NCBI GenBank assembly: GCA_029851415.1
Contig: CM056744.1
Coordinates: forward strand, 100,473,338-100,537,337
Direction of reading: 5' to 3'
From: Eretmocerus hayati
Taxonomy: Eukaryota; Arthropoda; Insecta; Hymenoptera; Aphelinidae
DNA length: 64,000 nucleotides
The translations under genes were made by a program, and so were the position numbers. Below the pieces are notes generated by a model. The model did no database searches. It worked only from the letters and a program-made list of their open reading frames with translations, and was not told the origin of the DNA. Shown here in pieces: positions 23,326 to 42,390 of the stretch; position 1 is the stretch's first letter; the number at the start of each line of letters is the position of its first letter.

Positions 23326-23689
23326 CGTGATTCGCCTGATGGGGCAGTGCCTGTAGATTGATGCCACGTGAGCCTTATACAGCACGCTCAGCTCACCACT
23401 CCACTGCCGCTGCTTTGCTGTTGTATTCCGTTCGAGTGCCTGGGCTTCGATGTGCTCGCTAGGAGAGCACGCGAGGAACTGACGGCGCGAGAGCAAACGT
23501 GCGTCAGAGGCGCCTTTCCTCCTCCGCTCTTCTCTGCATGTGTAACTTGCTTCTCCTGGCACACGTGTGTTCGCGCGCGGAATGTATGCACGACTGCGGC
23601 AGGCAAGGGCACGCGCGAACCGATAGACTCTCCTCTCTCTCCTTCGCTAGCGTGACTACATATGCCGCAAGTTGAGAGTTACAAAAAAA

Positions 23690-24000
23690 ATTTCAGGAAA
23701 AATTCGATGGAAAAATCATTTTTTATATTTTCATCCTCCTAAAATCGCGCAAGAAATATAATTTTTTTTTCTGTAAATTTTTGAAGAAAAATCCATTTTT
23801 TTATCTTCATCTTCCCAAAGTCGCGCAAAAAATATAATTTTTTTCGGCAAATTCTTGATGGAGAATCAATTTTTTTATTTCCATCCTCTCGAAATCGCGC
23901 GCGCAAGAGAGTTTTTTTTTTTTTAATCTTCGATAGAAAATCCATTTTTTTTATTCTCATCCACTTGGAATTGCGCAGAAATTTAATTTTCGATCTCTAG
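23690..24000. repeat. AT-rich sub-repeats of about 65 bp within each unit
   Basis: The pattern ATTTTC-ATCCTC-x-AAATCGCGCAAGAAATATA followed by a long T run and AAAATCCATTTTTT recurs about four times here. It is repeated in the spacers of the following units (about 24700-25010, 25680-25990, 26660-26970). Each sub-unit centres on a CGCGCAA motif. Confidence 0.75.
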
Positions 24001-24270
24001 AAATTTTCGTGATAAATTCATCTTATTCCTTCTCATCTCCCCAAAATCACGCATGAGTTGAATTTTTATTTTTCCTAGCTTGGTACTTCTAGGATGAAAT
24101 AAAAATCTGTAATTGTACTGATCTAATTTCCGTTCATGGACTTCACGGACTGATTGAATTGTGTATCATTCAGATCTTCAAAGATTACGACTTAATCACT
24201 ATTTCGGATTTCAAAAATGCTTCTACTCGAATGATTAGTATTCTCAACGCGCACTATTGGGTGTACTTAC

Positions 24271-24312
24271 TTTTGCTAAAACTGCTTGACTGCCATCTTC
24301 TGATTTCACCAT
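24271..24312 (-). CDS. Alternative first coding exon, unit 2
   Basis: Encodes MVKSEDGSQAVLAK with start context CATCATGG and donor AAA|GTAAGT (24265-24270), phase 0. The frame is also open upstream through the GC-rich block for about 100 codons in this unit, but stops break that extension in units 1 and 3, so the ATG at 24312 is the likelier start. Confidence 0.5.
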
Positions 24313-25264
24313 GATGTGTGTGATTGAAGGGATGCGTAGAGATTGGTGCTGCTTGAGTCTTGTACACCACCCGCAGCTCCCCACTCCACTGACGCTGCTC
24401 CGCTGTTGTATCCCGTTCGAGTGCCTGGGCTTCGATGTGCTCGCTAGGAGAGCACGCGAGGAACTGACGGCGCGAGAGCAAACGTGCGTCAGAGGCGCCT
24501 TTCCCCCTCCGCTCCTCTTTGCATGTGTAACTTGCTTCTCCTGGCACACGTGTGTTCGCGCGCGGAATGTATGCATGACTGCGGCAGGCAAGGGCACGCG
24601 CGAACCGATAGACTCTCCTCTCTCTCCTTCGCTAGCGTGACTACATAGCGTGACTACATATGCCGCAAGTTGAGAGTTACAAAAAAACTTTCAGGAAAAA
24701 TTCGATGGAAAAATCATTTTTTATATTTTCATCCTCCTAAAATCGCGCAAGAAATATAATTTTTTTTTCTGTAAATTTTTGAAGAAAAATCCATTTTTTT
24801 ATCTTCATCTTCCCAAAGTCGCGCAAAAAATATAATTTTTTCGGCAAATTCTTGATGGAGAATCAATTTTTCTATTTCCATCCTCTCGAAATCGCGCGCG
24901 CAAGAGAGTTTTTTTTTTAATCTTCGATTGAAAATCCATTTTTTTTATTTTCATCCGCTCGAAATTGCGCAAAAATTTAATTCTCGATCTTTAGAAATTT
25001 TCGTGATAAATTCATCTTATTCTTTTTCATCTCCCCAAAATGACGCATGAGTTGAATTTTTATTTTTCCTAGCTTGGTACTTCTAGGATGATATGAAAAT
25101 CTGTAATTGTACTGATCTAATTTCCGTTCATGGACTTCACGGACTGATTGAATTGCGTATCATTCAGATCTTCAAAGATTACGACTTAATCACTATTTCG
25201 GATTTCAAAAATGCTTCTACTCGAATGATTAGTATTCTCAACGCGCACTATTGGGTGTACTTAC

Positions 25265-25306
25265 TTTTGCTGGAACTGCTTGACTGCCATCCTCTGATTT
25301 CCCCAT
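25265..25306 (-). CDS. Alternative first coding exon, unit 3
   Basis: Encodes MGKSEDGSQAVPAK with the same start position and donor (25259-25264). Two residues differ from units 2 and 4 (V to G at position 2, L to P at position 12). Confidence 0.5.
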
Positions 25307-26246
25307 GATGTGTGTGATTGAAGGGATGCGTAGAGATTGGTGCTGCTTGAGTCTTGTACACTACCCGCAGCTCCCTACTCCACTGACGCTGCTCCGCTGT
25401 TGTATCCCGTTCGAGTGCCTGGGCTTCGATGTGCTCGCTAAGAGAGCACGCGAGGAACTGACGGCGCGAGAGCAAACGTGCGTTAGAGGCGCGTTTCCCC
25501 CTCCGCTCCTCTTCGCATGTGTAACTTGCTTCTCCTGGCACACGTGTGTTCGCGTGCGGAGTGTATGCACGACTGCGGCAGGCAAGGGCGAGCGCGAACC
25601 GATAGACTCTCCTCTCTCTCCTTCGCTAGCGTGACTACATATGCCGCAAGTTGAGAGTTACAAGAAAACTTTCAGGAAAAATTCGATGGAAAAATCATTT
25701 TTTATATTTTCATCCTCCTAAAATCGCGCAAGAAATATAATTTTTTTTTCTGTAAATTTTTGAAGAAAAATCCATTTTTTTATCTTCATCTTCCCAAAGT
25801 CGCGCAAAAAATATAATTTTTTTCGGCAAATTCTTGATGGAGAATCTATTTTTTCATTTCCATCCTCTCGAAATCGCGCGCGCAAGAGAGTTTTTTTTTC
25901 AATCTTCGATAGAAGATCCATTGTTTTTATTCTCATCCACTTGAAATTGCGCAAAAATTTAATTTTCGATCTCTAGAAATTTTCGTGATAAATTCATCTT
26001 ATTCCTTCTCATCTCCCCAAAATCACGCATGAGTCGAATTTTTATTTTTCCTATCTTGGTACTTCTAGGATGATATAAAAATCTGTAATTGTACTGATCT
26101 AATTTCCGTTCATGGACTTCACGGACTGATTGAATAGTGTATCATTCAGATCTTCAAAGATTACGACTTAATCACTATTTCGGATTTCAAAAATGCTTCT
26201 ACTCGAATGATTAGTATTCTCAACGCGCACTATTGGGTGTACTTAC

Positions 26247-26288
26247 TTTTGCTAGAACTGCTTGACTGCCATCTTCTGATTTCACCAT
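26247..26288 (-). CDS. Alternative first coding exon, unit 4
   Basis: Encodes MVKSEDGSQAVLAK, identical in protein to unit 2 but with a silent difference (CTA for TTA leucine). Donor GTAAGT at 26241-26246. Confidence 0.5.
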
Positions 26289-27228
26289 GATGTGTGTGAT
26301 TGAAGGGATGCGTAGAGATTGGTGCTGCTTGAGTCTTGTACACCACCCGCAGCTCCCCACTCCACTGACGCTGCTCCGCTGTTGTATCCCGTTCGAGTGC
26401 CTGGGCTTCGATGTGCTCGCTAAGAGAGCACGCGAAGAACTGACGGCGCGAGAGCAAACGTGCGTCAGAGGCGCGTTTCCCCCTCCGCTCCTCTTCGCAG
26501 GTGTAACTTGCTTCTCCTGGCACACGTGTGTTCGCGCGCGGAGTGTATGCACGACTGCGGCAGGCAAGGGCACGCGCGAACCGATAGACTCTCCTCTCTC
26601 TCCTCCGGTAGCGTGACTACATATGCCGCAAGTTGAGAGTTACAAAAAAATTTTCAGGAAAAATTCGATGGAAAAATCATTTTTAATATTTTCATCTTCC
26701 TAAAATCGCGCAAGATATATAATTTTTTTTTCTGTAAATTTTTGAAGAAAAATCCATTTCTTCATCTTGATCTTCCCAAAGTCGCGCAAAAAATATAATT
26801 TTTTCGGCAAATTCTTGATGGAGAATCAATTTTTTTATTTCCATCCTCTCGAAATCGCGCGCGCAAGAGAGTTTTTTTTTTTAATCTTCGATAGAAAATC
26901 CATTTTTTTTATTTTCATCCACTCGAAATTGCGCAAAAATTTAATTTTCGATCTTTAGAAATTTTCGTGATAAATTCATCTTATTCCTTTTCATCTCCCC
27001 AAAATCACGCATGAGTTGAATTTCTATTTTTCCTAGCTTGGTACTTCTAGAATGATATGAATATCTGTAATTGTACTGATTTAATTTCCGTTCATAGACT
27101 TCACGGACTGATTGAATTGTGTATCATTCATATCTTCAAAGATTACGACTTAATCACTATTTCGGATTTCAAAAATGCTTCTACTCGAATGATTAGTATT
27201 CTCAACGCGCACTATTGGGTGTACTTAC

Positions 27229-27270
27229 TTTTGCCATAATTCCTCGGCTGCCATCTTCTGATTTCACTAT
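27229..27270 (-). pseudogene. First exon of unit 5, start codon lost
   Basis: Aligned with the other units it reads I-VKSEDGSRGIMAK: the ATG is changed to ATA while the donor GTAAGT (27223-27228) is intact. I see no replacement in-frame ATG just upstream. The unit may give a non-coding leader or be dead. Confidence 0.5.
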
Positions 27271-27545
27271 GATGTGTTCGATTAAATGGATGGGTAGAGA
27301 TTGGTGCTGCTTGAACCTTGTATAGCACCCGCAGCTCTCCACTCCACTGCCGCTGCTCTGCTGTTATATTCCGTGCGAGTGCCTGGGCATCGATGTGCTC
27401 GCTAGGAGAGCACGCGAGGAACTGACGGCGCGAGAGCAAACGTGTGTCGAAGGCACTTTCCCCCTCCGCTCCCCTTTGCATGTGTAACTTGCTCCTCCTG
27501 GCACACGTGTGTTCGCGGGTCGAGTGTATGCACGACTACGGCAGG

Positions 27546-28325
27546 CATTCCAACAAATTCATTTCCAACAAATTGTCATTTTATATTAGCCCTATAACAA
27601 TCCTTCCTTGTTTATCTTATACAACATGACCATATGAAAGTGAGTTTCCGAGGAAATTCTAAGACTCCACTGATTCATTAAGTTTTACTGACCCGAAAGG
27701 AACAAAAATCGAAGTTCGGCTCATGAACTGAAAAATCGCATATCTTTTGTATAGATAAGTTTTAGACAAAACAAACTAATACGTATCTCGTTATTTTGAC
27801 CCTAGAATCATCAATTTCAGATCAGGGAAGATCCATCGTATCGACCTTTTTGGCTGCCCCATCTAAACTGGATCGAGTAACTAATATTTAGGAACTTATT
27901 TTGGAAACAGAAGAACATGTTCTGATAGTTGGAACCCATGAAAATAAATTTCTGTGGCGAGGGGGATTTTTTGAAGAATTTTTCATCGGTAATTACGCTT
28001 CTCTTCTGAATCTCGTTTAACTTACGCCTTTCCTTGAAAAATTACGGTCTTCTAAATTGAATCAATCAGACTCACGCTTCTTCAGAATTTAGACATGGTG
28101 GGTTGAGCTATTCTTCCATATCTTTATAAGGTGATCGGAGGAATTCTGAGGGCGTAGTTGCGTTTACGTTCGTTCGAATTTTTTTTTTTGTAGTTAACTC
28201 GGTACACGTTCTGTGATTGCATTAGTGTGTTACTTCTAGAAAACTAATTTTATTCGATTTGCAAGCATTTCCAGGAGCCAATACGCCTATCTAAACCATT
28301 TACAAGCCGAGCAGCGCGAGGCAAT
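27546..28325. other. No gene recognised
   Basis: AT-rich sequence between the tandem array and the TTTGCGCAC repeats. Nothing supported. Confidence 0.35.
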
Positions 28326-30695: not shown

Positions 30696-31312
30696 ACAAA
30701 AAGCAATTATCTGAAATTCTTAGAGCCAGAGTACAGTGAGACGGATGCTCGTGGTAAATATAAAATTTTCACGAATCTACTCTTAGAAGCTTTAATTGCA
30801 TGTACTCCTCGAAAGAAAGTTTTCTCTGGTGATCAGCAGAGAAATCCAGCATCTTGGTGGGACGAAGAGTGTGACAAGATCAAAAGATTGAGAAAAACTG
30901 CTCATAAAAGATAAAAATTTAACAAAATTTGGCGTGATTTTGAGGAATATCTAAAGGCATGCACGTGAGCCAAGGAAACATTTAAAATAAAAAATAAAAA
31001 CGAGAATCGTTCAGAAACTTGGTCAGTAGTATAGAATCCAATAGCCATAGATCATATGTCTGGAACACACTACAAATCTTCAAAAACAAATAGACGGAAG
31101 TTACTCCTTGCCACACCCTTGAGGATTACCAGAATGTTGAGAGAATTCAAATAGCATTTGATAAGATCAGCCCCCCTTTTCGTATGAATAACTCCGATTT
31201 TCTTCCAGATAATTGTCCCGAAAATGAATTTTTTAGTCGACCCTTCGACTTTGCAGAATTCAATCTGTCCCTGAGCAAAAGAAAAGCTGAGTCTCCTCCC
31301 GGCTTAGATGGA
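30690..31312 (+). pseudogene. LINE ORF2 linker and start of reverse transcriptase, decayed (left part)
   Basis: In shifting frames the plus strand reads ALIACTPRKKVFSGDQQ, NPASWWDEECDKIKRLRKTA, then FDFAEFNLSLSKRKAESPPG and LDG. The NPxxWWDxEC and KxxSPPGLDG patterns mark the endonuclease-RT linker and first RT block of Jockey/LOA/R1-type LINEs. Stops are frequent. The copy is cut exactly at the LDG codons by the 10.56-kb foldback element and resumes at 41874. It could be the missing 3' half of the LINE at 15786-18020, but that is not shown. Confidence 0.8.
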
Positions 31313-31389
31313 AGTAGCCTGTAGGGGTTGGTACGAGCACAGGATGGTACGAGCACATCCCTATCCTTTAAGCATGTAGGATGGCACGA

Positions 31390-31770
31390 GCACAGCCTAA
31401 CATAGTTAACCCATAACCCACAAATCTCCCCGATTCCATAACCCATAATGCTCTCCGATTCCATAACCCATGACCCACCATTCTCACAAATTCCACAACC
31501 CGACTCTCTAACCTATAACCCAAGTCTCTAACCCGACTTTCTAACCCATAACCCAACTTGCAAGATAACCCAATATTCTCTCAAATTCTACAACCCATTT
31601 CCTATAACCCAATATTCTCTCAAATTCTACCATAACTCATAACCCATCTTTCCAACCCATCACCCAACTCTCGAACCCATCGCTCTCTAACCCAACTCTC
31701 AGCCCATCTATCTAACCCAACATTCTAACCCATAAACCAACTCTCTAACCCAACTTGCGAGCCTCATCTG
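31390..31770. repeat. Telomere-like TAACCCA degenerate repeats (left arm)
   Basis: More than twenty TAACCCA or CAACCCA motifs occur, spaced by short runs such as CTCTC or ATTCTC. The complement is at about 41460-41790. The unit resembles, but is not, a regular telomere repeat. Confidence 0.75.
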
Positions 31771-31890
31771 CGCATGCGTAGATTTTTTGTGTTTATCGTG
31801 GAGTTAGTGTACTTGTACGAGGACAAAGAGCCCATACTTTCAAAGTCTTATTGGTGGCCCCGAAAAGGGCCGATTGTGATTCTTCTCCGC

Positions 31891-32235
31891 TTAGCTCGGG
31901 AGTGAGCAGGAGTCTGGGACATCCATCCTCCTGACCGATCTTGATGTTGGTACTGGATCAGGTCTTGTTGGGATCCTGACCCATGGTTCTCGAGGAGGTG
32001 GTAGCCATGGAGGTGACAGGGTGACCCGAACCTCGACAACCACTGCTGGTTCTCGCTGTCTCGGTTCAATGTCTATGATGGGCATAGATGTCGATTTGGG
32101 CTGAGCAAAACGTTGACCCATAGTTCTGCCGCGCTCGTCACCACGTTGTTGATCCATTGCAGTCAAAGTGTCGAATGACTTCATGGAGCCTATCATCATC
32201 GCTTTATAGTGAGTCCCCCACTCATCGAGCCGCAT
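31891..32235 (-). CDS. Outward-facing 114-aa frame in the left arm
   Basis: The minus-strand frame begins MRLDEWGTHYKAMMIGSMKS, continues TAMDQQRGDERGRTMGQRF and ends in a proline/arginine-rich tail (LSPPWLPPPREPWVRIP). The identical frame is on the plus strand of the right arm at 40990-41334. No known domain. The proline-rich C-terminus suggests a disordered region. It lies between the array and the terminus and could be the last exon of the array-encoded frame, or non-coding. Two identical copies per element give no independent evidence of selection. Confidence 0.3.
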   Translation of the reverse strand: MRLDEWGTHYKAMMIGSMKSFDTLTAMDQQRGDERGRTMGQRFAQPKSTSMPIIDIEPRQREPAVVVEVRVTLSPPWLPPPREPWVRIPTRPDPVPTSRSVRRMDVPDSCSLPS

Positions 32236-32432
32236 TCAACGCATGCGCATGAGTGCATGTTTTATCCTCAGTGGAATATTGTCCAGTCGTCTGAGAAAGA
32301 AACCCAGCAATCCAATTCCACGATTTCGATACCTAGCTCTTTCATCCGTGCATGATCGTCTTTACATATTCCACACTCTTTCATTCTATTCACGCAGGCT
32401 TTCAACTTGCGTAAGAATGGTGTTACGGATTG

Positions 32433-33720
32433 CTCCATAACCCATATTTTCAGGTATTTTGGCCGTATCTCAGCGGACAATGCCCCGAGAGGCTCCGCGA
32501 TGAGTGCATCGAGTTCCTCGTGGGCCCCTCTTTCATTTCCCAATCTGTGCTCCATAACCCATATTTCAAGGTCTTTTGGCCGTATCTCAGCGGATAATGC
32601 CCCGAGAGGCTCCGCGATGAGTGCATCGAGTTCCTCGTGGGCCCCTCTTTCATTTCCCATTCATTGCTCCATAACCCATATTTCAAGGTCTTTTGGCCCT
32701 ATCTCAGCGGATAATGCCCCGAGAGGCTCCGCGATGAGTGCATCGAGTTCCTCGTGGGCCCCTCTTTCATTTCCCAATCTGTGCTCCATAACCCATATTT
32801 CAAGGTTTTTTGGCCGTATCTCAGCGGATAATGCCCCGAGAGGCTCCGCGATGAGTGCATCGAGTTCCTCGTGGGCCCCTCTTTCATTTCCCATTCATTG
32901 CTCCATAACCCATATTTCAAGGTCTTTTGGCCGTATCTCAGTGAATAATGCCCCGAGAGGCTCCGCGATGAGTGCATCGATTTCCTCGTGAGCCCCTCTT
33001 TCATTTCCCATTCATTGCTCCATAACCCATATTTCAAGGTCTTTTGGCCGTATCTCAGTGAATAATGCCCCGGGAGGCCCCGCGATGAGTGTATCAAGTT
33101 CCTCGTGGACCCCTCTTCCATTCTACACACTGTGCTCTATAACCCATATTTCAAGGTCTTTTGGCCGTATCTCAGCGGATAATGCCCCGAGAGGCTCCGC
33201 GATCGGCGCGTTGAGTTCCTCGTGGACCCCTCTTTCATTCCCCATTCTAAGCTTCATAACCCATATTTCAGGGTCTCTTGGCCGTATCTCAGTGGATAAT
33301 GCCCCGAGAGGCTCCGCGACAAGTGCATTGGGTTGCTCGTGGACCCCCCTTCTATTTCCCATACCGTGCTCAATAACCCATATTTCGAGGTCTATTGGGC
33401 ATATCTCGGTAGATAATGCCCAGAGAGGCTCCGCGATGAGTGCATTACATTCCTCGTGGACCCCTCTTCCATTCTACACACTGTGCTCCATAACCCATAT
33501 TTCAAGGTCTTTTGGCCATATCTCGGTAGATAATGCCCAGAGAGGCTCCGCGATGAGTGCATCGAGTTGCTCGTGGACCCCCTTCAATTTTCCATACTGT
33601 GCTCCATAACCCATATTCCAAGGTCTTTTGGCTGTATCTTGGTAGATAATACTCAGAGAGGCCCCGCGACAAGTGCATATAACCCATATTTCAAAGTCTA
33701 TAGGCCATATGCTGAGAGAG
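32433..33720. repeat. 117-bp tandem array, left arm (six regular units, then diverged units)
   Basis: CTCCATAACCCATATTTCAAGG recurs (shortened here: CATAACCCATATTTCAAGG) every 117 bases from 32433 to about 33135, then continues with more diverged units to about 33720. Because 117 is 39 codons, frames stay open over long distances on both strands. On the minus strand the unit reads HEELDALIAEPLGALSAEIR and PKDLEIWVMEHRLGNERGA. Some units end the frame with TGA at GAGCAATGA. Hence coding is possible but not secure. Confidence 0.85.
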
Positions 33721-34427
33721 GCCCCCGGGATGAGCGCATTGTGTTCCTCGTGAACCCCGCTTACAACTTTTCATGCTGTGCTCCGTAACCCAACTCGCTC
33801 CATAACTCATAAACCTCCAAAAGAAGGGTTGCTCCATAACCCAACTTGCTCCATAACCCATGTGTCTTCAAAAGAATGTTTTACTCCATAACCCAACTTG
33901 CTCTATAACCCACGTGCCTCCAAAAAATGGGTTGCTCCATAACCTGTATTGGTATATCTTTTGGCCGTATCTCAGTGAACAATGCCACGAGAGGTCTCGC
34001 AACCGGTGCATTTGCTTCCTCGTAGGCGCCTCTTCAATTTTGAAACTGGTTCACCATCAGTCGGTGATGCAAGTTTCCTCCCTACCAACAGTCGGCAAAG
34101 TAGATTCTCTTCCTCATCATCAAGAGTTGAGCGGAGGTGATGCAGGTATCATGACAACTACTCTCTCCAGGCCCCGATCTGCGGGACTCAAGGCCCGTAA
34201 CTCAACAAATAAAACTAACTCACACGATTGAGCGTCAGCTATCGAATTCACGTCTAGTAGGCAGCCGTCCAGCAGCCAGATACCAGCAGCCAGCAGCCAG
34301 ATTCCAGCAGCCAGCAGCCGGGTGCAGGTGTCAAGTGGGGCAACTCATCCCGGTGCTCGCATCCTGATGCATGCGCTCCCCTCTAGCGGCCTGTTCTGAT
34401 CATTCCCACGACGTGCCGGTACTCAGC

Positions 34428-35260
34428 TATACCGCACGGTATTCGATCGGTATTCGGCTGTACTGCGCGGTATTCGATCGGTATTCGGTTATACCGCGCG
34501 GTATTCGATCGGCATTCGGCCATACCGCGCGGTATTCGATCGGTATTCGATCGGTATTCGGCTATACCGCGCGGTATTCCGTCGGTATTCGGCTATACCG
34601 CGCGGTATTCGATCGGTATTTGGCTATACCGCGCGGTATTCCGTCGGCATTCGGCTATACCGCACGGTATTCGATCGGTATTCGGCTATACCGCGCGGTA
34701 TTCCGTCGGTATTCGGCTATACCGCGCGGTATTCGATCGGTATTTGGCTATACCGCGCGGTATTCCGTCGGCATTCGGCTATACCGCACGGTATTCGATC
34801 GGTATTCGGCTATACCGCGCGGTATTCGATCGGCATTCGGCTATACCGCGCGGTATTCCGTCGGTATTCGGCTATACCGCGCGGTATTCTGTCGGTATTC
34901 GGCTATACCGCGCGGTATTCGATCGGTATTCGGCTATACCGCGCGGTATTCGATCGGTATTCGGCTATACCGCGCGGTATTCCGTCGGTATTCGGCTATA
35001 CCGCGCGGTATTCGATCGGTATTCGGCTATACCGCGCGGTATTCGATCGGCATTCGGCTATACCGCACGGTATTCGACTATACCGCGCGGTATTCCGTCG
35101 GTATTCGGCTATACCGCGCGGTATTCGATCGGTATTTGGCTATACCGCGCGGTATTCCGTCGGCATTCGGCTATACCGCACGGTATTCGATCGGTATTCG
35201 GCTATACCGCGCGGTATTCGATCGGCATTCGGCTATACCGCGCGGTATTCGATTAGTACT
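34428..35260. repeat. 31-bp palindromic iteron array, left arm (about 27 units)
   Basis: The unit is GCTATACCGCGCGGTATTC plus (GAT or CGT)CGG(T or C)ATTCG, 31 bases long. Its core ATACCGCGCGGTAT is a 14-base perfect palindrome. Two spacer types (GATCGG and CCGTCGG) alternate in a higher-order order with a repeat of about 124 bases near 34611, 34735 and 35125. Since 31 is not a multiple of three, a 93-base superunit gives a 31-residue peptide period and every frame stays open, which explains the long open frames here without any gene. Confidence 0.9.
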
Positions 35261-35290
35261 CGATCGGTATCCTGGTTTGAGTCATCACGA

Positions 35291-36238
35291 ATGGTCGGGA
35301 ACTCTGATATGAAAGGGATGATTCCTAGGGAGGTACTCCAGTCAATCAGAGCACGTCAAACCGCGGACATGGAGGACTATATCAAACAAAGAGATGAACT
35401 CGTCGAGCTCATGAAAGCCAAACGAGCTCTCAAACGAAAATATGTGGCGATGCAGCGCCAACAAGCTGAGTTTGAGAAAAACATGAGTGATACATTCAAG
35501 CCCATTACTGATCCACTCGAAAAAATCATAGCCCATCAAGAAAATCACCGGGATCCCCAGAAAGAATTCGGACAACTGGACGATTCGGTCAAGGCCTCGT
35601 ATATAGGCGACGAGACTTTAATGAATCGGAGCGTTCCAGAGAATATCGAGAGTCAAAATTCATCGGTTGCTTCATTCGAGACGGCTGATGATGAACTTAG
35701 CGAGCCCGAAGACTACTTATCTACCCTGCGTAGGGATGATCGTAATCTTGATAGGATATATGGAGTCAGACGGAATGGGAATTCCTTGGGAATCGGTAAA
35801 TCTCGAGTACAGCTAACCAATGACTATATCACAGTAGATAACCAGCGGTTCCCAACCACAACTGGTTTGCTTGAATTGATCTTCAAAAGATCCCCAGATC
35901 AAAATGTGATATCTGAGGAAGATATGAGAAACTATCGCAAAATCTTGGATGTCTCGCATGTTCACCGTAAAAGATTCGTGCACGATGGAGAACTGCGCAA
36001 GAGCAAGAGCCGAAAATTCCAGAACATAATCGCGCCACTATTTGACGTGGATAAACGAGGCGGATCACTGGCGAGTGGGTTGATCACTATATATTGGGAT
36101 GATCCGAATAAGATAGTCGACAGACTTCGGGGTCTAATTGATGAAAAGTCAGCTGGTAATCGAAATAACGATGATGAGATAAGAGCTATCTTAGAATCTT
36201 TGTATATGGCGGGCTACATAAGTACAACTTACTCTTGA
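35291..36238 (+). CDS. Coiled-coil/DUF8207-like protein of mobile elements (315 aa)
   Basis: An intact frame from ATG 35291 to TGA 36238, starting 30 bases after the iteron array. Residues about 10-85 are highly charged with heptad spacing (DELVELMKAKRALKRKYVAM), a likely coiled coil. Residues about 85-140 are acidic and serine-rich. Residues about 145-312 form the conserved part: IYGVRRNGNSLGIGKSRVQL, TTGLLELIFKRSPDQNV, EEDMRNYRKILDVSHVHRK, FQNIIAPLF, then IYWDDPNKIVDRLRGLIDEK and AILESLYMAGYIS. From memory this order (YGV, GLLEL, YKxIL, NIIxPLF, YWDDPNELVxRLRLL, IIEELxxAGII) matches an abundant arthropod repeat-encoded family that I know as DUF8207. Its function is not known to me. No catalytic motif of a transposase is visible. 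The neighbouring FLYWCH gene and the iterons suggest a DNA-binding or replication role, which is inference. Confidence 0.8.
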   Translation: MVGNSDMKGMIPREVLQSIRARQTADMEDYIKQRDELVELMKAKRALKRKYVAMQRQQAEFEKNMSDTFKPITDPLEKIIAHQENHRDPQKEFGQLDDSVKASYIGDETLMNRSVPENIESQNSSVASFETADDELSEPEDYLSTLRRDDRNLDRIYGVRRNGNSLGIGKSRVQLTNDYITVDNQRFPTTTGLLELIFKRSPDQNVISEEDMRNYRKILDVSHVHRKRFVHDGELRKSKSRKFQNIIAPLFDVDKRGGSLASGLITIYWDDPNKIVDRLRGLIDEKSAGNRNNDDEIRAILESLYMAGYISTTYS

Positions 36239-36323
36239 ATTAGTATTCTTGAGCAAGATTTAGTATAAATACAGATAAGAATAACCAGAGGAACATTACT
36301 CATTGAGCAGTTAAGCTGACGAC
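36239..36323 (+). promoter_or_regulatory. TATA promoter of the FLYWCH gene
   Basis: The 85-base gap between the two genes contains TATAAATA at about 36265 and, about 35 bases further, CATTGAGCAGTTAAG, which holds an arthropod-type CAGT initiator. The ATG at 36324 follows 12-20 bases later. The spacing fits a compact viral- or transposon-like promoter. Confidence 0.55.
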
Positions 36324-37457
36324 ATGGGTGAGAACTTTGAGGAAGCTCTCGAGAGAGCTGCTATGGCGGTGAAGAAGAAACTGCAGCTTCTACGCGAGGA
36401 GCCCTCATATCGAGGGGACCTGAGCAAATCGAATCAGGTCCGAGTACCGGGTGGAAATGAGGAGCCTCCACAGGCAGAAGAGATCGATGAATCGATGAAA
36501 TTCATCAAGAATCGTCTTGGCAAGGATCAACTTGTAGTGAATGGGAGTCATTTTAACCGAGAGAAAGTCCATCGAGACGGTACAGTTCGATGGAAATGCC
36601 ACGCATACTATAAGACCAAATGTCGAAGTACAGCAGTGACTCGGGGAACGAATCTGGTCAACGTTGGCGATCACAACCATGCCGGGGAGTTCATTTTACG
36701 AACACAACCGTCTACGTATGAGAATGCAGAGAATAGTGGAACTCTTGGCAATGTTGCGCCTCCAGAGAGTCGTGATCAGAACCAGTCGATAATCGTTGAG
36801 AATTCCAAGAGTTCGGTGGAATCGTCTCCTCACGAGTCATCGAATAGAGAGGGAGCTGTCGACAGTGTTACTCCTACGGAGGGTCGCAATGAGAGTCATT
36901 CAATGTTTGATAGAAGTTCTGACAATCCGGGTCTCACCAGTTCACAGGGTAATGCGGAATCATACCCTAGCTTTGATATTTCGGACCCTAGCAGTATACA
37001 CGAAGACCTAGAGAGTATATCATGTTCACAGAATGATTCCGGAAGTACCCGAGTATCCTACCCTTTCAGTTCGAGGGACGATTCAGTGTCTGACTCAGAT
37101 AATCCATGCATTGATAACTGGGAGTCCAAACAAAATGAGTCCAGTGAGCAATGGCTAACTCGCGATCATTGGCAACCCCATTGTTACTCCAGAGGGTCTG
37201 CGACAGGTGACGCCACAGACGAAATATACGATAGGGGAACTTCTCCATACATGGATTCCCGAGCTCCAAAGGCCGGAGCGTGGGTCCCTTGCCTAGTCAA
37301 AGGTTATTCGGGAAACAGTCAGCAAACTTCGAGGTCCAGGGACAGAGATTCATTGCTCACATTCGCACGTCAATCATTCAGACGATTAGGACTTCCGTCA
37401 TACGAGACTCCCACGGACCATACAATATGTGCAGGGTATCAGGAGGCGTCATTATAA
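36324..37457 (+). CDS. FLYWCH-type zinc-finger protein (377 aa)
   Basis: An intact ATG-to-TAA frame. Residues 1-57 are charged. Residues 58-122 carry a FLYWCH zinc finger: MKFIKNRLGKDQLVVNGSHF, then GTVRWKCHAYYKTKCRSTAV and VGDHNHAGE. The expected residues are present: F60, G74, W90, the metal ligands C92 and C100, and the HxH pair H117/H119. FLYWCH fingers bind DNA and occur in host factors such as mod(mdg4) isoforms and in several transposon groups. Residues 125-377 are serine/asparagine/glutamate-rich with repeated SSxxE stretches and no known domain, perhaps an activation or interaction tail. The gene has its own TATA box and lies 85 bases after the DUF8207-like gene. The natural hypothesis is that it binds the iterons or the arm repeats. 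That role is inferred. Confidence 0.85.
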   Translation: MGENFEEALERAAMAVKKKLQLLREEPSYRGDLSKSNQVRVPGGNEEPPQAEEIDESMKFIKNRLGKDQLVVNGSHFNREKVHRDGTVRWKCHAYYKTKCRSTAVTRGTNLVNVGDHNHAGEFILRTQPSTYENAENSGTLGNVAPPESRDQNQSIIVENSKSSVESSPHESSNREGAVDSVTPTEGRNESHSMFDRSSDNPGLTSSQGNAESYPSFDISDPSSIHEDLESISCSQNDSGSTRVSYPFSSRDDSVSDSDNPCIDNWESKQNESSEQWLTRDHWQPHCYSRGSATGDATDEIYDRGTSPYMDSRAPKAGAWVPCLVKGYSGNSQQTSRSRDRDSLLTFARQSFRRLGLPSYETPTDHTICAGYQEASL

Positions 37458-37619
37458 TGGGAGATACTACTGGTCCAAACTGGAGCCAGAAATAGGGAGC
37501 TGAGCGACTCATGTTTACATGAACCCTTAGACAAGCGTCTCTTGGTTGATGAGGTAAACTTAGTCCAAGGACTCTAACTCTCGACCCGAGTTGCGGGATG
37601 ACTTGAGGGAGAGAATAGC

Positions 37620-38450
37620 GATAGAGTACCGCACGGTATAGCCGAATACCGACGGAATACCGCGCGGTATAGTCGAATACCGATCGAATACCGTGCGGTA
37701 TAGCCGAATGCCGATCGAATACCGTGCGGTATAGCCGAATGCCGACGGAATACCGCGCGGTATAGCCAAATACCGATCGAATACCGCGCGGTATAGCCGA
37801 ATACCGACGGAATACCGCGCGGTATAGTCGAATACCGTGCGGTATAGCCGAATACCGACGGAATACCGCGCGGTATAGCCGAATACCGATCGAATACCGC
37901 GCGGTATAGCCGAATACCGATCGAATACCGCGCGGTATAGCCGAATACCGACGGAATACCGCGCGGTATAGCCAAATACCGACGGAATACCGCGCGGTAT
38001 AGCCGAATACCGACGGAATACCGCGCGGTATAGCCGAATGCCGATCGAATACCGCGCGGTATAGCCGAATACCGATCGAATACCGTGCGGTATAGCCGAA
38101 TGCCGACGGAATACCGCGCGGTATAGCCAAATACCGATCGAATACCGCGCGGTATAGCCGAATACCGACGGAATACCGCGCGGTATAGCCGAATACCGAT
38201 CGAATACCGTGCGGTATAGCCGAATGCCGACGGAATACCGCGCGGTATAGCCAAATACCGATCGAATACCGCGCGGTATAGCCGAATACCGACGGAATAC
38301 CGCGCGGTATAGCCGAATACCGATCGAATACCGATCGAATACCGCGCGGTATGGCCGAATGCCGATCGAATACCGCGCGGTATAACCGAATACCGATCGA
38401 ATACCGCGCAGTACAGCCGAATACCGATCGAATACCGTGCGGTATAGCTG
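37620..38450. repeat. 31-bp palindromic iteron array, right arm (about 27 units)
   Basis: The same unit as on the left, complementary strand. The order of spacer types differs from the left array in the middle, so the arrays have rearranged since the arms were last identical. Confidence 0.9.
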
Positions 38451-39479
38451 AGTACCGGCACGTCGTGGGAATGATCAGAACAGGCCGCTAGAGGGGAGCG
38501 CATGCATCAGGATGCGAGCACCGGGATGAGTTGCCCCACTTGACACCTGCACCCGGCTGCTGGCTGCTGGAATCTGGCTGCTGGCTGCTGGTATCTGGCT
38601 GCTGGACGGCTGCCTACTAGACGTGAATTCGATAGCTGACGCTCAATCGTGTGAGTTAGTTTTATTTGTTGAGTTACGGGCCTTGAGTCCCGCAGATCGG
38701 GGCCTGGAGAGAGTAGTTGTCATGATACCTGCATCACCTCCGCTCAACTCTTGATGATGAGGAAGAGAATCTACTTTGCCGACTGTTGGTAGGGAGGAAA
38801 CTTGCATCACCGACTGATGGTGAACCAGTTTCAAAATTGAAGAGGCGCCTACGAGGAAGCAAATGCACCGGTTGCGAGACCTCTCGTGGCATTGTTCACT
38901 GAGATACGGCCAAAAGATATACCAATACAGGTTATGGAGCAACCCATTTTTTGGAGGCACGTGGGTTATAGAGCAAGTTGGGTTATGGAGTAAAACATTC
39001 TTTTGAAGACACATGGGTTATGGAGCAAGTTGGGTTATGGAGCAACCCTTCTTTTGGAGGTTTATGAGTTATGGAGCGAGTTGGGTTACGGAGCACAGCA
39101 TGAAAAGTTGTAAGCGGGGTTCACGAGGAACACAATGCGCTCATCCCGGGGGCCTCTCTCAGCATATGGCCTATAGACTTTGAAATATGGGTTATATGCA
39201 CTTGTCGCGGGGCCTCTCTGAGTATTACCTACCAAGATACAGCCAAAAGACCTTGGAATATGGGTTATGGAGCACAGTATGGGAAATTGAAGGGGGTCCA
39301 CGAGCAACTCGATGCACTCATCGCGGAGCCTCTCTGGGCATTATCTACCGAGATATGGCCAAAAGACCTTGAAATATGGGTTATGGAGCACAGTGTGTAG
39401 AATGGAAGAGGGGTCCACGAGGAATGTAATGCACTCATCGCGGAGCCTCTCTGGGCATTATCTACCGAGATATGCCCAA

Positions 39480-40794
39480 TAGACCTCGAAATATGGGTTA
39501 TTGAGCACGGTATGGGAAATAGAAGGGGGGTCCACGAGCAACCCAATGCACTTGTCGCGGAGCCTCTCGGGGCATTATCCACTGAGATACGGCCAAGAGA
39601 CCCTGAAATATGGGTTATGAAGCTTAGGATGGGGAATGAAAGAGGGGTCCACGAGGAACTCAACGCGCTGATCGCGGAGCCTCTCGGGGCATTATCCGCT
39701 GAGATACGGCCAAAAGACCTTGAAATATGGGTTATAGAGCACAGTATGTAGAATGGAAGAGGGGTCCACGAGGAACTTGATACACTCATCGCGGGGCCTC
39801 CCGGGGCATTATTCACTGAGATACGGCCAAAAGACCTTGAAATATGGGTTATGGAGCAATGAATGGGAAATGAAAGAGGGGCTCACGAGGAAATCGATGC
39901 ACTCATCGCGGAGCCTCTCGGGGCATTATTCACTGAGATACGGCCAAAAGACCTTGAAATATGGGTTATGGAGCAATGAATGGGAAATGAAAGAGGGGCC
40001 CACGAGGAACTCGATGCACTCATCGCGGAGCCTCTCGGGGCATTATCCGCTGAGATACGGCCAAAAAACCTTGAAATATGGGTTATGGAGCACAGATTGG
40101 GAAATGAAAGAGGGGCCCACGAGGAACTCGATGCACTCATCGCGGAGCCTCTCGGGGCATTATCCGCTGAGATACGGCCAAAAGACCTTGAAATATGGGT
40201 TATGGAGCAATGAATGGGAAATGGAAGAGGGGCCCACGAGGAACTCAATACACTTATCGCGGGGCCTCCCGGGGCATTATTCACTGAGATACGGCCAAAA
40301 GACCTTGAAATATGGGTTATGGAGCACAGATTGGGAAATGAAAGAGGGGCCCACGAGGAACTCGATGCACTCATCGCGGAGCCTCTCGGGGCATTATCCG
40401 CTGAGATACGGCCAAAAGACCTTGAAATATGGGTTATGGAGCACAGAATGGGAAATAAAAGAGGGGCCCACGAGGAACTCGATGCACTCATCGCGGAGCC
40501 TCTCGGGGCATTATCCGCTGAGATACGGCCAAAAGACCTTGAAATATGGGTTATGGAGCACAGAATTGGAAATGAAAGAGGGGCCCACGAGGAACTCGAT
40601 GCACTCATCGCGGAGCCTCTCGGGGCATTATCCGCTGAGATACGGCCAAAAGACCTTGAAATATGGGTTATGGAGCACAGAATGGGAAATGAAAGAGGGG
40701 CCCACGAGGAACTCAATGCACTCATCGCGGAGCCTCTCGGGGCATTGTCCGCTGAGATACGGCCAAAATACCTGAAAATATGGGTTATGGAGCA
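39480..40794. repeat. 117-bp tandem array, right arm (nine regular units plus diverged ones)
   Basis: From 40794 down to about 39741 there are nine units of 117 bases (1053 bases in total), then diverged units to about 39150. The regular units are almost identical to each other, which points to recent expansion. Sense reading is plus strand, outward. Confidence 0.85.
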
Positions 40795-40957
40795 ATCCGT
40801 AACACCATTCTTACGCAAGTTGAAAGCCTGCGTGAATAGAATGAAAGAGTGTGGAATATGTAAAGACGATCATGCACGGATGAAAGAGCTAGGTATCGAA
40901 ATCGTGGAATTGGATTGCTGGGTTTCTTTCTCAGACGACTGGACAATATTCCACTGA
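40214..40957 (+). CDS. Outward-facing 247-aa frame made of 39-aa repeats (right arm)
   Basis: The plus-strand frame has about five 39-residue repeats (HEELDALIAEPLGALSAEIR, PKDLEIWVMEHRLGNERGA) followed by a unique C-terminal part: SVTPFLRKLKACVNRMKECG, ICKDDHARMKELGIEIVELD and ending SDDWTIFH. The unique part looks more protein-like than the repeats and is also present in the left arm at 32268-32430 on the minus strand. The repeats are predicted helical by composition. Stops (GAGCAATGA) interrupt the frame further upstream. It could be a repeat-rich element protein or an open frame kept by chance through the multiple-of-three unit. Not recognised as a family. Confidence 0.35.
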   Translation: MGNGRGAHEELNTLIAGPPGALFTEIRPKDLEIWVMEHRLGNERGAHEELDALIAEPLGALSAEIRPKDLEIWVMEHRMGNKRGAHEELDALIAEPLGALSAEIRPKDLEIWVMEHRIGNERGAHEELDALIAEPLGALSAEIRPKDLEIWVMEHRMGNERGAHEELNALIAEPLGALSAEIRPKYLKIWVMEQSVTPFLRKLKACVNRMKECGICKDDHARMKELGIEIVELDCWVSFSDDWTIFH

Positions 40958-40989
40958 GGATAAAACATGCACTCATGCGCATGCGTTGA

Positions 40990-41334
40990 ATGCGGCTCGA
41001 TGAGTGGGGGACTCACTATAAAGCGATGATGATAGGCTCCATGAAGTCATTCGACACTTTGACTGCAATGGATCAACAACGTGGTGACGAGCGCGGCAGA
41101 ACTATGGGTCAACGTTTTGCTCAGCCCAAATCGACATCTATGCCCATCATAGACATTGAACCGAGACAGCGAGAACCAGCAGTGGTTGTCGAGGTTCGGG
41201 TCACCCTGTCACCTCCATGGCTACCACCTCCTCGAGAACCATGGGTCAGGATCCCAACAAGACCTGATCCAGTACCAACATCAAGATCGGTCAGGAGGAT
41301 GGATGTCCCAGACTCCTGCTCACTCCCGAGCTAA
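40990..41334 (+). CDS. Outward-facing 114-aa frame in the right arm
   Basis: Identical in protein to the minus-strand frame at 31891-32235 (begins MRLDEWGTHYKAMMIGSMKS). It starts 32 bases after the stop of the 39-aa repeat frame in the next reading frame over, so a spliced or frameshifted joint product is possible. No known domain. Confidence 0.3.
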   Translation: MRLDEWGTHYKAMMIGSMKSFDTLTAMDQQRGDERGRTMGQRFAQPKSTSMPIIDIEPRQREPAVVVEVRVTLSPPWLPPPREPWVRIPTRPDPVPTSRSVRRMDVPDSCSLPS

Positions 41335-41873
41335 GCGAAGAAGAATCACAATCGGCCCTTTTCGGGGCCACCAATAAGACTTTGAAAGTATGGGCTCTTT
41401 GTCCTCGTACAAGTACACTAACTCCACGATAAACACAAAAAATCTACGCATGCGCAGATGAGGCTCGCAAGTTGGGTTAGAGAGTTGGTTTATGGGTTAG
41501 AATGTTGGGTTAGATAGATGGGCTGAGAGTTGGGTTAGAGAGCGATGGGTTCGAGAGTTGGGTGATGGGTTGGAAAGATGGGTTATGAGTTATGGTAGAA
41601 TTTGAGAGAATATTGGGTTATCTTGCAAGTTGGGTTATGGGTTAGAAAGTCGGGTTAGAGACTTGGGTTATAGGTTAGAGAGTCGGGTTGTGGAATTTGT
41701 GAGAATGGTGGGTCATGGGTTATGGAATCGGAGAGCATTATGGGTTATGGAATCGGGGAGATTTGTGGGTTATGGGTTAACTATGTTAGGCTGTGCTCGT
41801 GCCATCCTACATGCTTAAAGGATAGGGATGTGCTCGTACCATCCTGTGCTCGTACCAACCCCTACAGGCTACT

Positions 41874-42390
41874 GATGGAATTGATTGTTAAGCACCCAAT
41901 GAAATGCCGATCAAATTTTGACTAATGTTAGATATTTTCAACAAAATGTTCAGCAGCAAAAAGTATCCAAAAGATTGAACCAACCAGTATATCCATTTCT
42001 TGAAAAAGCCAGATGGCAGAAGCGTTCGCCCTGTTAGTCTCGCGTTATGCATATGCAAGCTTTTTGGAACAATAGTCAAAAACAGAGTAGATTGGTAGCT
42101 AGATTCGAATAACCTCCTTCCTCAGAGCCAGGCTGAATTTCGAAAAAGGGAATTTGACGTTGGAGAACTTGGCCAAGCTTCTCATAGACGTGGAAGAAGG
42201 CCTATGCGAGGATTGAGATGTATTGGCAGCATTCTTAGATGTTAGTAGCGCCTTCGACAATATTGATTCGATCAAACTACTTGAAAAATTTGCGGGACTT
42301 GGATGCCCTATCAATATTATTGAATTCATCTAACATTTGACATTCAAAAGAACAGTATATTTCGGCGATATGACATTCTTCTTCTTGTGA
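41874..42390 (+). pseudogene. LINE reverse transcriptase, decayed (right part)
   Basis: Begins with the second GATGGA (codons of LDG). Broken frames then read YIHFLKKPDGRSVRPVSLAL, CKLFGTIVKNRVDW, PQSQAEFRKREF and AAFLDVSSAFDNIDSIKLLE, the last being RT motif A (LDVSSAFDN). The YxDD motif is not reached before the similarity fades near 42390. Interrupted by several stops. This is the continuation of 30690-31312. Confidence 0.8.

What the first reader, a model, noticed from the sequence alone, without database searches (positions are those of the whole stretch)
31313..41873. A complete 10.56-kb foldback element with two cargo genes and roughly 4-kb repeat-filled arms
Seen: exact terminal complementarity, a 6-bp GATGGA duplication, near-identical long arms, and an intact two-gene core. 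Known: Polinton/Maverick elements give 6-bp duplications and AG...CT ends, but they encode integrase and PolB, which are absent here. Inference: this is a little-described class of element, or a non-autonomous relative mobilised by a helper, with a DUF8207-like plus FLYWCH gene pair as its signature.
Basis: partly seen in the sequence, partly recalled or inferred. Interest (0 to 1): 0.95.

Follow-up and report, generated by a model that had tools for sequence, protein, structure and literature searches.

The report
Gene-carrying parasite of a virus-like transposon
A 10.6-kb hairpin-armed DNA element in a parasitoid wasp appears to be a parasite of larger virus-like transposons: it has borrowed their ends, so it could be copied by their machinery, while keeping two ancient genes of its own, one of which probably binds the repeats in its arms.

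Summary
The foldback element is real: 31313-41873, with a perfect 6-bp duplication and arms about 98% identical. It belongs to a large family in this genome, most likely Eretmocerus hayati.

It has no recognisable polymerase, integrase or capsid gene. Its termini are those of 17-22 kb elements in the same genome. In the three sampled by Pfam, these carry capsid, ATPase, integrase and PolB genes between them, i.e. they are Polintons. The DUF8207-type gene is itself a Polinton gene.

It is not a simple deletion derivative. Its two genes form an old monophyletic lineage, constrained between clades: 69 of 75 close DUF8207 hits sit beside the FLYWCH gene, against 0 of 50 distant ones. The ends are younger and match different Polinton lineages in different satellite clades, with a Polinton left-end segment on both arms.

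The short repeats in the inner arms track the FLYWCH domain type, including one natural domain-plus-array swap. I read it as a helper-dependent Polinton satellite that recaptures helper ends and encodes a protein binding its own arrays. Helper replication, packaging and repeat binding are inferred, not shown. My paper searches listed no such element. The window copy's FLYWCH gene lacks its conserved tail.

The parts
31307..31312 (.). left copy of the 6-bp target-site duplication GATGGA
31313..41873 (.). whole satellite element, 10,561 bp, ends AGTAGCCTGTAGGGG...CCCCTACAGGCTACT
31313..32424 (.). outer left arm, homologous to the LEFT end of resident Polintons (83-90% nt; beyond about position 710 only left ends matched)
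40801..41873 (.). outer right arm, the same Polinton left-end segment, inverted
32271..32423 (-). last 51 codons of the Polinton left-end gene, left-arm copy
   Evidence: tblastn 96% identity to the L011 gene
40802..40954 (+). last 51 codons of the Polinton left-end gene, right-arm copy
   Evidence: tblastn 96% identity to the L011 gene
40990..41331 (+). small open frame (114 aa; mirrored in the left arm); 97 of its residues are 88-93% identical to five Polinton left ends; coding status unsure
32431..33678 (.). 117-bp tandem repeats, left arm (67-73% to repeats in Polinton right-side pieces L014 and L015)
39196..40794 (.). 117-bp tandem repeats, right arm
34417..35253 (.). 31-bp array, left inner arm (unit with CCGCGCGG palindrome); proposed FLYWCH-protein binding array
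37613..38457 (.). 31-bp array, right inner arm, inverted
35291..36238 (+). ORF1, 315 aa, DUF8207-type protein (model: long N-terminal helix plus C-terminal domain, mean pLDDT 75.9), homologous to a Polinton gene
36324..37457 (+). ORF2, 377 aa, FLYWCH zinc-finger protein; in this copy frameshifted after residue 363
41874..41879 (.). right copy of the 6-bp target-site duplication GATGGA

Best explanation
The element is a helper-dependent satellite of Polinton/Maverick elements. Shown from sequence: no polymerase, integrase or capsid gene was found in it; its termini and 6-bp duplications are those of Polinton-type elements in the same genome; the two-gene core (DUF8207 + FLYWCH) is an old lineage whose between-clade changes show constraint; two satellite clades carry the ends of two different Polinton lineages; a Polinton left-end-specific segment sits on both arms. 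Inferred: a resident Polinton's protein-primed PolB and its integrase recognise the shared ends and copy and insert the satellite; the left-end inverted duplication arose as in defective genomes of protein-primed linear DNA viruses (snap-back of a displaced strand) and may place a replication or packaging signal at both ends; satellites renew their ends by recombination with whichever Polinton is active. The FLYWCH protein probably binds the short-repeat arrays in the inner arms and, with the DUF8207 protein, favours satellite DNA in helper replication, packaging or integration. Confidence: helper dependence about 0.85, repeated end capture about 0.8, FLYWCH-array binding about 0.6, packaging into Polinton particles about 0.35.
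For: Helper genes in long elements with the same ends: DJR capsid PF21738 E 1e-112, PLA2 domain, A32-like ATPase, rve + chromo integrase, PolB PF03175 (ten frames from three of the eight long elements). A second Polinton lineage, matched in ends to satellite clade B, has capsid 2e-109 and integrase 7e-17 in the one element sampled. ORF1 is 37% identical to the Polinton DUF8207 protein, E 7e-66; the satellite ORF1 clade has 100/100 support and is sister to Polinton proteins of this genome, 97/95. Pairing: 28 of 29 plus 41 of 46 close ORF1 matches lie beside ORF2, 0 of 50 distant ones. dN/dS between clades A, B and C is 0.12-0.25 for ORF1 and 0.29-0.47 for ORF2. Duplications: 16 of 17 perfect for the first end type, 5 of 5 and 3 of 3 for clades B and C. 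The second end subtype of clade A groups with two 21-kb elements, 100/100. A clade B arm carries the Polinton-II left-end gene with 0 synonymous changes at 88 sites and 3 nonsynonymous, while ORF1 shares 39% aa with that Polinton's DUF8207. Left-end segment on both arms. Arrays follow FLYWCH type: 13 of 13 alpha, 7 of 9 beta; mosaic swap B/B2.
Against: No movement, episomal DNA or particle was observed, and no resident Polinton was shown to be intact: PolB appeared only as separate frames in the pieces read. Five of the eight long elements of the first end type had no Pfam test. DUF8207 has no known function and its model matches no solved structure at E 0.001. Among young clade A copies dN/dS runs from about 0.04 to 3 on a handful of changes, and clade A against its 88% relative gives 0.6-1.1, so many copies may be dead; between clades dS is near saturation; B against B2 in ORF2 gives 0.53. 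12 of 81 ORF2 matches had no ORF1 match beside them. The first-subtype satellite ends cluster among themselves with weak placement. The array-FLYWCH link rests on one independent switch, so Fisher p = 1.3e-5 overstates it; 2 of 9 beta elements showed no array, several others only 3-5 exact units, and B2 arrays hold a few alpha-type units. One Polinton right end also matches the clade A arm up to position 710, and clade B arms mix both ends in their outer part. Clade C ends were not compared with Polintons genome-wide: that search did not complete.
Confidence: 0.8

Rival explanations
1. An ordinary deletion derivative of a Polinton: internal genes lost by chance, two frames left as passengers, mobilised passively like a MITE.
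For: Shared ends and 6-bp duplications; minis of about 1.6 kb with the same ends exist, one of them read.
Against: The core is not a recent subset of the Polintons compared: ORF1 is 33-45% identical to the three non-satellite DUF8207 sequences compared, ORF2 had no tblastn match below E 0.5 in 11 Polinton pieces, and both genes are constrained between clades.
Confidence: 0.12
2. An autonomous new transposon class in which ORF1 or ORF2 is an unrecognised transposase.
For: Only two core genes are conserved across clades; FLYWCH fingers occur in some MULE transposases (recalled).
Against: No catalytic domain in Pfam scans; a DUF8207 homologue lies in Polintons that have their own integrase; the ends are those of Polintons and differ between clades with the same genes.
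Confidence: 0.04
3. The arrays are unstable minisatellites without function, and the FLYWCH-array correlation is shared ancestry plus one recombination event.
For: Only one clean switch (B to B2); two beta elements showed no array in the stretch read.
Against: In B/B2 the two changed tracts are separated by a 3' ORF2 block that stayed 83-97% identical; the prevailing unit type agrees with the FLYWCH type in 20 of the 20 elements where an array was seen.
Confidence: 0.35
4. Assembly artefact producing false inverted arms.
For: Long inverted repeats can be misassembled; one copy (C4:121710137-121722371) carries an inverted piece of its own flank.
Against: PacBio HiFi assembly, if the organism is E. 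hayati (passages of PMC10482854); many copies with different flanks and proper duplications.
Confidence: 0.02

Closest known systems
Polinton/Maverick elements
   Same: AG...CT ends, 6-bp duplications, DUF8207-type gene, arm sequences
   Different: No PolB, integrase, ATPase or capsid match; about 10 kb instead of 17-22 kb; carries a FLYWCH gene and short-repeat arrays not seen in the Polinton pieces read
Foldback-type elements (Drosophila FB; Galileo)
   Same: Long, internally repetitive inverted arms around a small core (Galileo: abstract of PMC3573991 in a search listing; FB otherwise recalled)
   Different: Galileo is classed with the P element (same abstract); here ends and 6-bp duplication are Polinton-type and no transposase domain was found
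Defective adenovirus genomes with inverted left ends (recalled), and the adenovirus left-end packaging domain
   Same: Left end of a linear genome repeated at both ends; in adenovirus the packaging domain lies near the left end and works within 600 bp of the terminal repeat (passages of PMC5033970)
   Different: Here the elements are inserted in chromosomes, carry their own conserved genes and renew their ends; packaging untested
Virophages, transpovirons and other satellites of DNA viruses (recalled)
   Same: Helper-dependent mobile DNA with own genes
   Different: No capsid match, and the proposed helper is a Polinton in an animal genome

Membership tests
Polinton/Maverick (autonomous) | 6-bp target-site duplication and AG...CT inverted ends | tested here: met
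Polinton/Maverick (autonomous) | encodes PolB, rve integrase and DJR capsid protein | tested here: not met
   no tblastn match in the element to local Polinton capsid, ATPase, integrase or PolB pieces; Pfam of three of its frames; present in sampled long elements with the same ends
Non-autonomous Polinton (broad sense) | shares termini with Polintons in the same genome | tested here: met
Non-autonomous Polinton (broad sense) | is actually mobilised by Polinton proteins | not testable with these tools
   needs an experiment
Simple deletion derivative | interior is a recent subset of the parent element | tested here: not met
   ORF1 33-45% identical to non-satellite homologues, satellite clade 100/100, ORF2 not found in 11 Polinton pieces
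MULE/Phantom with FLYWCH | MULE transposase domain and 8-10 bp duplication (recalled) | tested here: not met
   Pfam finds FLYWCH only in ORF2; duplication is 6 bp
Foldback/Galileo | long internally repetitive inverted arms | tested here: met
Foldback/Galileo | P-element-type transposase for Galileo, 7-9 bp duplications (recalled) | tested here: not met
Satellite virus | packaged in helper particles | not testable with these tools
   left-end duplication is only suggestive

The most novel reading that the evidence does not exclude
These are proviral satellites of living animal Polinton viruses. They are replicated by the Polinton's protein-primed polymerase and packaged in its capsid through left-end signals placed at both ends. 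They persist by repeatedly stealing the ends of whichever Polinton is current, and they encode a self-recognition system in which a FLYWCH protein binds its own arm arrays, so that DNA-binding domain and array switch together.
Probability: 0.33. Interest if true: 0.92.

Novelty: new variant of a known kind. Interest (0 to 1): 0.82.

Why it matters
Whether animal Polintons are live, replicating viruses is open; particles of Mavericks had not been observed as of PMC8097293 (abstract in a search listing). A gene-bearing satellite that carries near-identical copies of current Polinton ends implies recent Polinton replication in trans in this wasp, and gives a countable reporter for it. It also offers a natural pair of DNA-binding domain and repeat array, in a 31-bp and an 11-bp version, that can be tested directly, and a place to ask what the DUF8207 protein does.

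Tried and rejected
Viral contigs (IMG/VR) with the DUF8207 alignment: 81 pattern matches, none confirmed. PDB sequence search with a PolB piece: no hit. Foldseek of the ORF1 model: no PDB match at E 0.001; one viral match at that level, a protein named DUF8207 under Cotesia sesamiae Mombasa bracovirus. The label DUF8207/PF26634 comes from the domain listed for the 62 homologues and from that name; the local Pfam scan gave window ORF1 no family above its cut-off. Profile search with ORF2 found two proteins, both named Eretmocerus hayati, only 7995 candidates being scored. The 117-bp repeats as a coding 39-aa repeat: open in several frames because the unit lacks stops; not pursued. The 114-aa arm frame: differences by codon position 80/50/96, weak. 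Not done for want of an answer from the genome server: a PolB census (asked) and a search with clade C ends. One protein search, one structure job and further fetches were left unused.

Paper searches that listed no non-autonomous Polinton with its own genes and nothing on DUF8207; I judged these by titles and abstract starts. Passages were read only in PMC13116730, PMC10482854, PMC6035795, PMC8097293 and PMC5033970. 'Maverick' and 'polinton' do not occur in the two E. hayati genome papers. The library lacks most subscription papers.
Full report
Observation. The element at 31313-41873 is real and bounded to the base by GATGGA duplications at 31307-31312 and 41874-41879. Its arms align with 3865 of 3930 columns identical. 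From outside in, the arms hold a 1.1-kb terminal segment, 117-bp repeats, 51-bp repeats and a 31-bp array with the palindrome CCGCGCGG, which occurs 40 times in the element and 0 times in the rest of the window. Between them lie ORF1 (315 aa) and ORF2 (377 aa, FLYWCH E 4e-12). ORF2 here is frameshifted after residue 363 relative to the three other ORF2 sequences aligned. The window maps to G000:C4:100473338-100537337 of a 692-Mb, 17-sequence assembly. Two proteins named Eretmocerus hayati lie on a contig whose length equals C1, and the published E. hayati assembly has 692.1 Mb, four chromosomes and 13 unanchored sequences, from PacBio HiFi (passages of PMC10482854).

Copies and ends. A 388-bp terminal probe gave 45 matches, best candidates only. 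I closed 17 terminal pairs: 16 have a perfect 6-bp duplication and one 5 of 6; three other ends fetched had no partner in the list. Eight pairs are 9.6-13.9 kb apart and each holds ORF1 and ORF2 matches. One is 12.5 kb with a capsid-like frame and DUF8207 fragments. Eight are 17.2-22.2 kb. Two end subtypes occur among the satellites, AGTAGCCTGTAGGGG and AGTAGCCTTGTAAGG. In a tree of the last 150 bp the second subtype groups two satellites with two 21-kb elements at 100/100; the first-subtype satellites cluster with weak placement among Polinton ends. The two 21-kb elements hold DUF8207 matches; their other genes were not read.

The long class is Polinton. Pieces read one at a time encode a double jelly-roll capsid protein (1e-112), a PLA2-domain protein, an A32-like ATPase, an rve + chromo integrase and PolB (ten frames from three of the eight long elements; whether any element is intact was not tested). 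In L013 a DUF8207-type gene lies between the ATPase and an integrase-like frame; its product is 37% identical to window ORF1 (E 7e-66). So DUF8207 is a Polinton gene here, which may also explain its listing under a Cotesia bracovirus (a Maverick inside a bracovirus is recalled). In the window element, local Polinton capsid, minor-protein, PLA2, ATPase, integrase and PolB pieces find nothing at E 0.1; only DUF8207 matches.

The core is a separate old lineage. In the ORF1 and ORF2 genome searches (best candidates only), ORF1 matches of 84% identity or more sit next to ORF2 in 28 of 29 cases, those of 56-70% in 41 of 46, and those of 46% or less in 0 of 50 (125 of 134 rows used, second fragments left out). 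12 of 81 ORF2 matches had no ORF1 beside them. In a tree of 27 DUF8207 proteins the satellites are one clade (100/100) on a long stem, sister to Polinton proteins of this genome (97/95). Between clades A, B and C dN/dS is 0.12-0.25 for ORF1 and 0.29-0.47 for ORF2, with dS 0.7-2.2; B against B2 gives 0.53 in ORF2; among young clade A copies it is unresolved. Two clade B copies differ at 1 of 858 sites in ORF1 and at none in ORF2, so activity is recent.

The ends are younger than the core. Two clade B satellites end in AGTAGTGGAGCTAG and one clade C satellite in AGTAGATGAGC, with 6-bp duplications in 3 of 3. A probe from a clade B end found six pairs 16-18 kb apart, each with one of the 36-37% DUF8207 matches inside (in two of the six the far end was not matched to its first base), together with satellites and two minis of about 1.6 kb. 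Duplications are perfect in 5 of 5 pairs read: three long elements, one satellite, one mini. The one long element sampled has capsid (2e-109) and integrase (7e-17) genes. The first 81 bases are identical between the clade B probe and several of the long ends. So clades A and B, which share the core, use the ends of two different Polinton lineages.

Left end on both arms. Both outer arms of the window element match the Polinton left end (capsid side) at 83-90% in 5 of 5 left ends read. Right-side pieces of five elements match arm positions 254-1112 weakly, not at all, or only up to about 710 (L014); one of them lacks its last 0.7 kb. The left-specific part carries the last 51 codons of the left-most Polinton gene at 96% identity. 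In clade B both arms carry the Polinton-II left-end segment at 97-98% over 1.1 and 0.77 kb, the left arm including the left-end gene with 0 synonymous and 3 nonsynonymous differences. The 2.35 kb searched near that Polinton's right end lacks the gene. Clade B arms hold a second, older copy of the gene, 51% identical to Polinton-I, and the clade C element holds one of 43-46% in both arms. The simplest reading is an old left-end inverted duplication followed by separate end captures. Clade B arms mix both Polinton ends in their outer part.

Arrays and FLYWCH. Of 23 satellites compared, one had no array stretch fetched. All 13 others with alpha FLYWCH domains have GCGGTATwCG-type arrays, mostly 31-bp units; of 9 with beta domains 7 have GCGGTCTwCG-type arrays, mostly 11-bp units, and 2 show no array in the stretch read. 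The 11 Polinton pieces contain no CCGCGCGG. Elements B and B2 are 92-100% identical through ORF1 and the ORF2 start, 60-82% through the FLYWCH part, 83-97% through the ORF2 end, then differ in the array. Domain and array have switched while the block between did not. Hence the proposal that ORF2 binds the arrays; it rests on one independent switch.

Mechanism. Helper replication and integration through shared ends follow from what is known of Polintons (protein-primed PolB, integrase: recalled; 6-bp duplications and AG/AGT end motifs in vertebrate Mavericks: PMC8097293 passages). Left-end duplication resembles defective adenovirus genomes (recalled); adenovirus has its packaging domain near the left end (PMC5033970 passages). 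Replication, packaging and binding have not been shown here.

Verdict. A helper-dependent, gene-bearing satellite family of Polintons, of which the window copy is one, probably damaged in ORF2. The paper searches named in Tried and rejected listed no such element.

Noticed in passing
window 23389-27547: Tandem array of a 982-bp unit, 4.2 copies, 94% match, open in more than one frame.
   Followed up: no
G000:C4:121710137-121722371 (L007, L046, L030): A clade A copy has a second element end 1.65 kb inside, preceded by an inverted piece of its own right flank: a hairpin-like rearrangement or a local assembly fault.
   Followed up: no
L082 (G000:C1:200701522-200703191) and G000:C4:83508379-83509963: Minis of about 1.6 kb with clade B/Polinton-II ends; L082 was read (duplication GGGTGA, no core gene seen), the other only by its end matches.
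   Followed up: partly
L011 883-1371, L075 554-1021: Left-most Polinton gene (154-163 aa, MGF..CIHFL...), no Pfam family at E 0.01, also present in satellite arms.
   Followed up: partly
P0065 (E. hayati QAD02_023702): Public gene model joining sequence 90% identical to ORF2 (41% of the query) with trypsin domains PF00089/PF13365: fusion or faulty model.
   Followed up: no
L018 6181-7230 / L019 2-1873: LINE-type reverse transcriptase frames in the 13.9-kb clade A copy C1:119935869-119949765 (judged by eye).
   Followed up: no
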